Assembly (NCBI GenBank): GCA_963383645.1
Contig: OY726557.1
Coordinates: 157,941,599 to 158,005,598 of the forward strand
From: Muscardinus avellanarius
Taxonomy: Eukaryota; Chordata; Mammalia; Rodentia; Gliridae
Reading direction: 5' to 3'
DNA length: 64,000 bases
Part shown: positions 40,665-41,743 of the stretch, one piece after another
Layout: each line of letters opens with the position of its first letter
Position numbering within the stretch: position 1 is the stretch's first letter
Translations under genes and position numbers: made by a program
The notes under the pieces: generated by a model
Told to the model about the DNA's origin: nothing
The model's input: only the letters and a program-made list of their open reading frames with translations
The model's database searches: none

Positions 40665-41743
40665 CTGGGATTGGAGCCTGCTGTGAGGCAGGGCCGGTGC
40701 TGGGGCCTCCAAGGCCTGGATTGGAGCCTGCCGAGGGGTTAGGTTGGTGCTGGGGCCAGCGAGGCTGGGATCGGAGCCTGCTGTGAGGCAAGGCTGCTAC
40801 TGAGGCCTCTGAGGCCGAGATTGGAGCCTGCTGAGGGATTAGGTCAGTGCCGGAGCCAGGGAGGCTGGGATTGGAGCCTGCTGTGAGGCAAGGCCGCTAC
40901 TGAGGCGTCCAAGGCTGGGATTGGAGCCTGCTAATGGGTTAGGCCAGTGCCGAGGCCAGCGAGGCTGGGATTGTCGCCTGCCGTAAGGCAAGGCTGGTTC
41001 TAGGGCCTCCGAGGCCTGGGCTGGAGCCCGCCAAGGGGTAAGGCTGGTGCCGGACCCAGCAAGGCTGGGATCGAAGCCTGCCGTGAGGAAAGGCCGGTGC
41101 TGGGTCCCCCAAGGTCAGGATAGGAGCCTGCCGATGGGTTATGCTGGTGCCAGGGTCAGCGAGGCTGGGATTGGAGCCTGCCTTGAGGCAAGGCTGGTGC
41201 TGGGGCCTCTGAGGCCAGGATCAGAGTCAGCCGAAGGGATAGGCTGGTGCAGGTGCCAGCGAGGCCAGGATCGGAGCCTCCCATGAGGCAAGGCCGGTGC
41301 TGGAGCCAGTGAGGTCTGGATCAGAGTCCTCCGGGTGGCCAGGCCACTACTGAGGCCGTCAAGAGTGGGATCGGAACTTGCAATGCGGCATGCACAGAGA
41401 AATATCACAGAAAATAACCAGATGCTTCCCCTAATTAGCAAAAACTAGGAGGAAAGGGGTAACAGGAGGAGGTCGAGTTATAGAAAGGGCCCTATAGCAA
41501 AGCAATTAAGGTGATCAATCAGAGGGTATGGGATGGGGGAGGATGGAACCTCTTTAAAACTCAGGAGGTATGTAAACAAATGTATCAAAGATAATCACCA
41601 ATCAAGCATGGGATCGAGGGAGGGGGAGGGAATGGGATGGGGATTGGATGAGGGCTAACTGGATGATGTGTGCTTGTATATCCTCTCAAGTCTTGTATTC
41701 CAATGTGATGTATGATTACAATGCACCAATAAAAATATTTTTA
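40665..41743 (+). mobile_element. Composite retrotransposon: 50-bp repeat array joined to an L1 3' end
   Basis: The duplication aaaacccatttaat at 40651-40664 and 41744-41757 bounds one 1079-bp insertion. Its first two thirds (40668-about 41390) is an array of GC-rich 50-bp units. From about 41391 it aligns with the 3' ends of the other L1 copies here: 'tagaaagggccctatagcaa', 'ctctttaaaactcaggaggt', a G-rich tract and 'caatgcaccaataaaaatat'. A tail 'tatttttaaa' follows. The plan, tandem repeat plus L1 3' end with target-site duplication, resembles SVA-type elements, though no Alu or LTR part is seen. Alternatively it is an L1 with a repeat-rich 5' UTR and an internal deletion. Confidence 0.85.
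40668..41390 (+). repeat. Array of fourteen and a half 50-bp GC-rich units in a 100-bp alternating pattern
   Basis: Units start ggattggagcctg or a close variant at 40668, 40718, 40768, 40818, 40868, 40918, 40968, 41018, 41068, 41118, 41168, 41218, 41268, 41318 and 41368 (partial). No unit has gained or lost a base. Odd units mostly continue 'ctgtgaggcaaggc', even units 'ccgaggggttaggc', so the true period is a 100-bp dimer. Open frames here are by-products, as 50 is not a multiple of three. Confidence 0.93.

What the first reader, a model, noticed from the sequence alone, without database searches (positions are those of the whole stretch)
40665..41743. SVA-like composite retrotransposon (VNTR plus L1 3' end) in a rodent-like genome
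Seen: one 14-bp duplication encloses both a GC-rich tandem array and an L1 3' end, so they moved as one RNA copy. Known: primate SVA and gibbon LAVA are VNTR-containing composites moved by L1; I know of no such family in squirrels. Inference: this may be a member of an undescribed non-autonomous family using the L1 3' end for recruitment. The 5' end falls inside the array, so a full-length source may carry more.
Basis: partly seen in the sequence, partly recalled or inferred. Interest (0 to 1): 0.85.

Follow-up and report, generated by a model that had tools for sequence, protein, structure and literature searches.

The report
Repeat array fused to LINE-1 end
A 1.1 kb stretch of mammalian (possibly squirrel) DNA is a single "copy-and-paste" insertion in which a GC-rich tandem-repeat array is fused to the tail end of a LINE-1 jumping gene; whether it belongs to a new family of such hybrids or is a one-off or cut-down LINE-1 could not be decided with the data available.

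Summary
One 14-bp duplication (40651-40664 / 41744-41757), at a TT/AAAA LINE-1 endonuclease site, encloses a tandem array (40665 to about 41390; 50-bp half-units, 100-bp period) and a LINE-1 3' end. That 3' end was checked independently: its ORF2 stop and 3' UTR align with another copy in the window (46863-47184), whose upstream part matches the C-terminus of human L1 ORF2p (E 7e-6). No shared word of 6 or more links the junction to either flank, so both parts most likely arrived as one RNA copy.

The SVA-like family reading is untested. The own-genome search failed at all eleven attempts; the collections that answered gave nothing beyond chance, nor did a positive control with the L1 tail. 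The 5' CT/Alu-like domain shared by SVA, LAVA, PVA and FVA is absent from this copy.

Leading reading: a cut-down LINE-1, the array being the source L1's own tandem-repeat 5' UTR joined to its 3' end with the coding body lost. Repeated 5' UTRs are reported for mouse, rat, horse, elephant, hyrax and opossum L1s. Close rivals are a multi-copy composite family and a one-off chimera. The array's last ~80 bp are degenerate, mildly favouring a long-lived source.

The parts
40651..40664 (+). left target site duplication AAAACCCATTTAAT; cut site reads ATTT/AAAA on the + strand (L1 endonuclease TT/AAAA)
   Evidence: motif as stated in PMC13174262 (passage)
40665..41264 (+). core of GC-rich tandem array: six 100-bp units, each an A half and a B half of 50 bp (half-consensuses 38 of 50 identical); the copy starts inside the array
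   Evidence: TRF; pairwise identity 74-86%; shuffle control
41265..41395 (+). 3' edge of array: one further unit, then about 80 bp of degenerate unit sequence (41315 unit mean 27.7 of 50 to its type; partial 41365-41396 best 21 of 32)
41386..41396 (+). array-to-L1 junction (position uncertain by about 10 bp; short ambiguous overlap)
41390..41448 (+). last ~19 codons of L1 ORF2 (one frameshift) with stop TAG 41446-41448
   Evidence: aligns with stop at 46888-46890; that copy matches human L1 ORF2p C-terminus
41449..41743 (+). L1 3' UTR: G-rich polypurine tract with G-quadruplex pattern 41610-41642, AATAAA 41728-41733, very short A tail
41744..41757 (+). right target site duplication AAAACCCATTTAAT

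Best explanation
A single target-primed reverse transcription event by the host's LINE-1 machinery inserted a 1079-bp copy of an RNA whose 5' part was a GC-rich 50/100-bp tandem array and whose 3' part was an L1 3' end (last ~19 ORF2 codons plus 3' UTR). The sequence hallmarks of this step are shown. Most likely (inferred) the array is the tandem-repeat 5' UTR, i.e. the promoter array, of a host L1 family. The RNA or cDNA would then be an internally deleted 'mini-L1': the body from the array's 3' edge to the end of ORF2 was lost by template jumping at short homology or by splicing. The copy was further 5'-truncated within the array and has since decayed, in part at CpG sites.
For: One perfect duplication encloses both parts at an L1 endonuclease site, and no word of 6 or more is shared between the junction region and either flank. 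The L1 3' end is verified by an aligned ORF2 stop and by the human ORF2p match of its sister copy. The array lies 5' of the L1 tail, where a 5' UTR array would be. [quoted passage not shown] Spliced, internally deleted L1 copies are known, of the intra-5'UTR and 5'UTR/ORF1 kinds (SpIREs; PMC5860796, abstract and passages). CpG positions vary most: of 54 cells at 9 sites, 20 are CG, 27 TG/CA and 7 other, against 66, 7 and 5 of 78 for GC sites. That fits a source of higher CpG content, as in a promoter array, but see the CC and GG controls under evidence against.
Against: No full-length L1 of this host was available, so nothing shows that its 5' UTR carries this array. The array matches nothing else in the window, and no tether or ORF1 remnant sits between array and tail. 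PMC6454616 found no ~200-bp monomers as an L1Rn feature, few 600-bp repeats in rat, and holds that monomers proliferated specifically in Mus, so rodent L1s outside Mus need not carry long arrays. The unit length (50/100 bp) also differs from the mouse monomer. SpIREs described in what I saw do not join a 5' UTR to the end of ORF2. No clean splice junction could be recognised by reading. A deletion landing just in the array's degenerate edge is a mild coincidence. The CpG argument is weakened by two other controls: CC sites show 47 kept, 32 transitions, 5 other of 84, and GG sites 101, 31, 12 of 144; site choice was biased in all these counts because each site had to show the undecayed form. 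The array's CpG observed/expected is 0.37 against 0.22 for the window, far from an intact CpG island.
Confidence: 0.4

Rival explanations
1. A member of an undescribed multi-copy non-autonomous family, 'VNTR + L1 3' end', transcribed from its own upstream sequence and mobilised in trans by L1, as SVA and LAVA are in apes. This copy lost its 5' domain by truncation inside the array.
For: Composite architecture with one duplication. The unit size of 50 bp and GC richness resemble the 30-50 bp GC-rich SVA units (PMC4432496, passage). Repeat-unit variants occur: shared non-CpG states in units 40765 and 40865. The array degenerates at its L1-side edge. All bases of one copy have the same age since insertion, so that excess most likely predates insertion, as expected of a long-lived source in which the array already abutted the L1 piece.
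Against: Only one copy seen; the array is absent from the rest of the 64-kb window. No other copy could be looked for in the host (genome search failed in 11 of 11 attempts). Hominoid composites are described as specific to hominoid primates (PMC4432496; PMC7353768, start of abstract). Searches of the paper library for sciurid or rodent counterparts showed none by title or start of abstract among the papers listed: 20 of 291, 20 of 60, 1 of 1, 15 of 612, 12 of 13.
Confidence: 0.28
2. A one-off chimera. Either the L1 reverse transcriptase jumped from an L1 3' end onto an unrelated VNTR-bearing RNA, or a transcript ran from a minisatellite through an adjacent truncated L1 and used its poly(A) signal, and was copied once.
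For: L1 forms chimeras with diverse RNAs; template switching and RNA processing give same-orientation joins (PMC13174262, sections 14 and 17 read). Array and tail join without a recognisable gap at short ambiguous homology.
Against: Needs an expressed GC-rich VNTR of unknown origin. A random jump would rarely land on the array's degenerate edge, though the read-through version explains this well.
Confidence: 0.25
3. Coincidence of separate events: an ordinary 5'-truncated L1 plus an array that expanded in place, or an L1 that landed beside an existing minisatellite.
For: Unit-to-unit divergence outside CpG (15.9% pairwise) could be post-insertional in amount, so in-place expansion of a short seed is not strictly excluded.
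Against: The duplication lies outside the array, not at the L1 start (one search finds no nested repeat of 6 or more). The edge units are more diverged than the core, whereas units made after the insertion from adjacent sequence give no reason for a distinct L1-side edge.
Confidence: 0.05

Closest known systems
L1 elements with monomeric (tandem-repeat) 5' UTRs, e.g. mouse L1Md A/Tf/Gf, and L1s of rat, horse, elephant, hyrax, opossum
   Same: tandem units 5' of L1 sequence, same-strand L1 3' UTR with polypurine tract, TPRT hallmarks, truncation inside the array
   Different: 100-bp (2 x 50) unit rather than ~200-bp mouse monomers; no tether, ORF1 or ORF2 body in this copy; homology of the array to an L1 5' UTR not shown
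SVA / LAVA / PVA / FVA VNTR composites of hominoids
   Same: GC-rich 50-bp-scale VNTR joined to another 3' domain and inserted by the L1 machinery; LAVA also has an L1 (L1ME) piece in its 3' part
   Different: no CT-hexamer/Alu-like 5' domain in this copy, no SINE-R or Alu parts seen; 3' domain is an L1's own 3' end with its poly(A) signal; copy number unknown
SpIREs and other internally deleted L1 copies
   Same: L1 5' part joined to a later part with the middle missing; L1 insertion hallmarks
   Different: deletion would remove nearly all of both ORFs; no consensus splice junction recognised
Chimeric L1 insertions (U6, 7SL, mRNA 5' transductions; Law and Burns 2026, PMC13174262)
   Same: other sequence upstream of an L1 3' end in one duplication, same orientation
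   Different: the partner is a VNTR array, not a known small RNA or exon

Membership tests
LINE-1 insertion (TPRT product) | target site duplication at a TT/AAAA site | tested here: met
LINE-1 insertion (TPRT product) | L1 3' end: ORF2 C-terminus, 3' UTR polypurine tract, AATAAA | tested here: met
LINE-1 insertion (TPRT product) | poly(A) tail | tested here: inconclusive
   only one A beyond the AAAA of the duplication; eroded or very short
L1 with monomeric 5' UTR, internally deleted | array homologous to 5' UTR of a full-length host L1 | not testable with these tools
   no host genome reachable
L1 with monomeric 5' UTR, internally deleted | tether and/or ORF1 downstream of the array | tested here: not met
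   array passes directly into the ORF2 C-terminus; expected if the body is deleted, so it does not decide
SpIRE (spliced L1 retrocopy) | splice donor/acceptor consensus at the deletion junction | tested here: inconclusive
   reading by eye of the junction against the second L1 copy: no clean consensus, junction ambiguous by ~10 bp
SVA/LAVA-type VNTR composite | central GC-rich VNTR of 30-50 bp units | tested here: met
   unit size of SVA
SVA/LAVA-type VNTR composite | 5' CT-hexamer/Alu-like domain shared by all four families | tested here: not met
   the duplication abuts the array directly; the copy may be 5'-truncated, so a full-length source could differ
SVA/LAVA-type VNTR composite | many dispersed copies sharing the same internal junction | not testable with these tools
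   no sign of sciurid sequence in any collection that answered; positive control with the L1 tail frame also found nothing

The most novel reading that the evidence does not exclude
The insertion is one copy of an undescribed, multi-copy, L1-mobilised VNTR composite family of squirrels (array + L1 3' end, possibly with a still unseen 5' domain). That would be a second, independent origin of the SVA/LAVA body plan outside apes, possibly built from a promoter array and an L1 tail.
Probability: 0.28. Interest if true: 0.75.

Novelty: new member of a known kind. Interest (0 to 1): 0.42.

Why it matters
If the junction recurs, VNTR composites evolved at least twice in mammals, and what the VNTR does for mobilisation could be compared between independent inventions. 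[quoted passage not shown] If instead the array is an L1 5' UTR, the copy gives a handle on a sciurid-type L1 promoter array, of which I recall no description (recall; not a literature claim). If it is a one-off chimera, it is ordinary.

Tried and rejected
Searches for relatives. Viral contigs with an array pattern and an L1-end pattern: 0 and 0 stretches. Genome contigs with the array pattern: 5 bacterial contigs with one match each. I compared the element with the five by BLAST and printed only the first ten rows. Those rows were L004 (nine) and L005 (one), 20-25 bp pieces over the pattern itself, so chance; rows for L001-L003, if any, were not in the part printed. phages and plasmids by blastn: no match. 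Protein database with two array reading frames, one spanning the junction: nothing at E 1 or better. A positive control with an L1 tail frame, which also takes in 60 bases of flank, found nothing either. The database therefore shows no sign of sciurid L1 sequence, and these negatives carry little weight. Rfam at gathering threshold: 0 matches in the window. Pfam with the ORF2 tail piece: 0.

Array as a structured RNA: not supported for the first 300 nt, fold energy z 0.33, 127 of 200 shuffles at least as stable.

L1 landing next to a resident minisatellite: rejected because the duplication lies outside the array and no word of 6 or more links 41340-41430 to either flank.

Other L1 ends as a yardstick: no flanking duplication of 10 or more was recognised around the ends at 47.2 kb and 10.6 kb, so I have no second well-marked L1 insertion in the window to compare with. 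Of the five places matching the L1-end pattern with up to 3 mismatches, I set aside 31616-31632 (3 mismatches; 0.36 expected by chance) without following it.

Junction position: the last partial array unit and the L1 ORF2 sequence resemble each other weakly, so the breakpoint cannot be placed better than about 41386-41396.

Age estimate: not attempted as a figure. No subfamily consensus for the tail was at hand, and pairwise unit divergence mixes pre- and post-insertion changes.

Full report
What is there. The window holds a 1079-bp insertion at 40665-41743 flanked by an exact 14-bp duplication, AAAACCCATTTAAT, at 40651-40664 and 41744-41757. In 5000 random pairs of window stretches at about the same spacing, a shared word of 14 or longer occurred once. 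At the left duplication the + strand reads ATTT/AAAA, the L1 endonuclease target TT/AAAA as given in PMC13174262 (passage). The 3' end is AATAAAAATATTTTTA followed by the duplication, so the poly(A) tail is almost lost; this is the one insertion hallmark that is weak here.

The array. Tandem Repeats Finder reports period 100 with 6.4 copies at 40665-41307 and a 50-bp sub-period to about 41345. Each 100-bp unit is an A half and a B half whose consensuses agree at 38 of 50 positions. The six full units 40665-41264 are 74-86% identical in pairs. Lag identity is 0.794 at 100 and 0.66 at 50, about 0.3 at neighbouring lags, and at most 0.364 at lag 100 in 1000 single-base shuffles. GC is 0.635-0.67 in the 200-bp windows wholly inside 40700-41299, against 0.325-0.415 in the windows just before the array, 40100-40599. 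The first 300 nt do not fold better than shuffles.

CpG. Differences between units concentrate at CpG columns: 42.2% pairwise divergence there and 15.9% elsewhere. Of 54 cells at 9 CpG sites, 20 are CG, 27 are TG or CA and 7 other; for GC sites 66, 7 and 5 of 78. Two further controls are less clear-cut: CC sites 47, 32 and 5 of 84, and GG sites 101, 31 and 12 of 144. Site choice is biased in all of these, since each site had to show the undecayed form. The array's CpG observed/expected ratio is 0.37, the window's 0.22. This is consistent with decay from a CpG-richer source but does not prove a promoter. Some non-CpG variants are shared by units 40765 and 40865, so unit types existed within the array.

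A gradient at the L1 side. Mean identity of the twelve core half-units to others of their type is 36.2-43.0 of 50. It is 37.5 for 41265, 27.7 for 41315, and best 21 of 32 for the last partial unit. The last value still exceeds 3000 random window 32-mers (maximum 19) and 3000 single-base shuffles (maximum 20). Since every base of one retrocopy has the same age after insertion, the extra divergence of the edge most likely predates insertion. I infer that the array's 3' edge belonged to a long-lived source. This mildly favours a source that already had array next to L1, or an L1 5' UTR with a truncated last unit, over a random jump into a VNTR.

The L1 part. Three other places in the window carry related L1 3' ends: 46863-47184 (71% over 332 columns), 10450-10581 (81% over 133), and a weaker minus-strand end at about 44090-44200. 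A fifth pattern match at 31616-31632 with 3 mismatches was not followed. None of the three has an array upstream: 46.7-46.9 kb continues into ORF2, and the other two are short ends. No flanking duplication of 10 or more was recognised around the 47.2-kb and 10.6-kb ends. The 46.7-46.9 kb copy translates, with one stop, into a piece that matches human L1 ORF2p residues 1221-1271 of 1274 at E 6.9e-6. Its ORF2 stop aligns with TAG 41446-41448 of the element. In the element the codons MHREISQ from 41390 parallel MLSEISQ. Array-phase identity falls to background at about 41395, so the junction lies at about 41386-41396. The 3' UTR has a G-rich tract with a quadruplex pattern at 41610-41642, as do the 47.2-kb and 10.6-kb ends.

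One event. No word of 6 or more is shared between the junction region 41340-41430 and either outer flank, so there is no sign that the L1 piece or the array was inserted on its own. The single outer duplication indicates that the array and the L1 end came in together.

What could not be done. The collections that answered gave nothing: viral contigs 0 and 0 stretches; 5 bacterial contigs with one pattern match each, of which the rows I printed (L004, L005) cover only the pattern; phages and plasmids none; proteins none. A positive control with an L1 tail frame also found nothing, so these negatives say next to nothing about copy number.

How it most likely works. Shown by sequence hallmarks: TPRT by L1 machinery of one RNA carrying array then L1 3' end. 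Inferred: the array is the tandem-repeat promoter (5' UTR) of a host L1, and the body was lost by template jumping or splicing. Support is by precedent. [quoted passage not shown] against my reading, it also found no ~200-bp monomer as a feature of rat L1Rn and sees monomer proliferation as specific to Mus. SpIREs (PMC5860796, abstract and passages) show that spliced L1 RNAs are copied, though the kinds described there are intra-5'UTR and 5'UTR/ORF1. I put this at 0.40, a true composite family at 0.28, a one-off chimera (PMC13174262, sections 14 and 17 read) at 0.25, and separate events at 0.05.

Relation to known families. It moved like SVA or LAVA and has a GC-rich ~50-bp VNTR, but the CT/Alu-like 5' domain that the four hominoid composites share (PMC4432496, passages) is absent from this copy, so it is not filed as a member. 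PMC4432496 and PMC7353768 (start of abstract) describe VNTR composites as specific to hominoid primates. Searches showed no sciurid or rodent counterpart by title or start of abstract among the papers listed (20 of 291, 20 of 60, 1 of 1, 15 of 612, 12 of 13); most of those papers were seen only as listings. (17 of 17, 0 and 15 of 37 listed) showed none either.

Host. The window contains at least 11 copies of a ~200-bp dimeric SINE (the table was cut at 80 rows) that I recall as the B1-dID type of squirrels and relatives. This is recall, not a test. [quoted passage not shown]

Verdict. The family claim is open and, on precedent, somewhat less likely than a cut-down L1. A BLAST search against squirrel genomes would probably settle it.

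Noticed in passing
46680-47200: An ordinary 5'-truncated L1 3' end with ORF2 C-terminus (matches human L1 ORF2p, E 6.9e-6), 71% identical to the element's tail; no array upstream.
   Followed up: yes
10436-10600 and 44090-44200 (minus): Two further short L1 3' ends ending in CACCAATAAA, also without an array.
   Followed up: partly
10899-11132, 11837-12066, 13394-13592, 13614-13820, 16096-16306, 22673-22866, 26383-26587, 29306-29524, 47959-48174, 51809-52012, 61254-61465: At least 11 copies of a ~200-bp dimeric SINE (B1-like left half, ID-like right half, A-rich tail; names recalled), the best pair 94% identical.
   Followed up: partly
2562-2743, 23667-23852, 29540-29739, 33206-33397, 35705-35900, 62538-62726: A second, more diverged set of related ~190-bp SINEs.
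   Followed up: no
about 43700-43790 (minus): A stretch after a splice-acceptor-like TTTCTTGCAG reads FEKELQRISEAYESLVKSTTKRESLDKAMR, a possible host exon; no PDB sequence match.
   Followed up: partly
52564-52626: A 29-bp unit repeated 2.2 times at 97% match, not a simple microsatellite.
   Followed up: no
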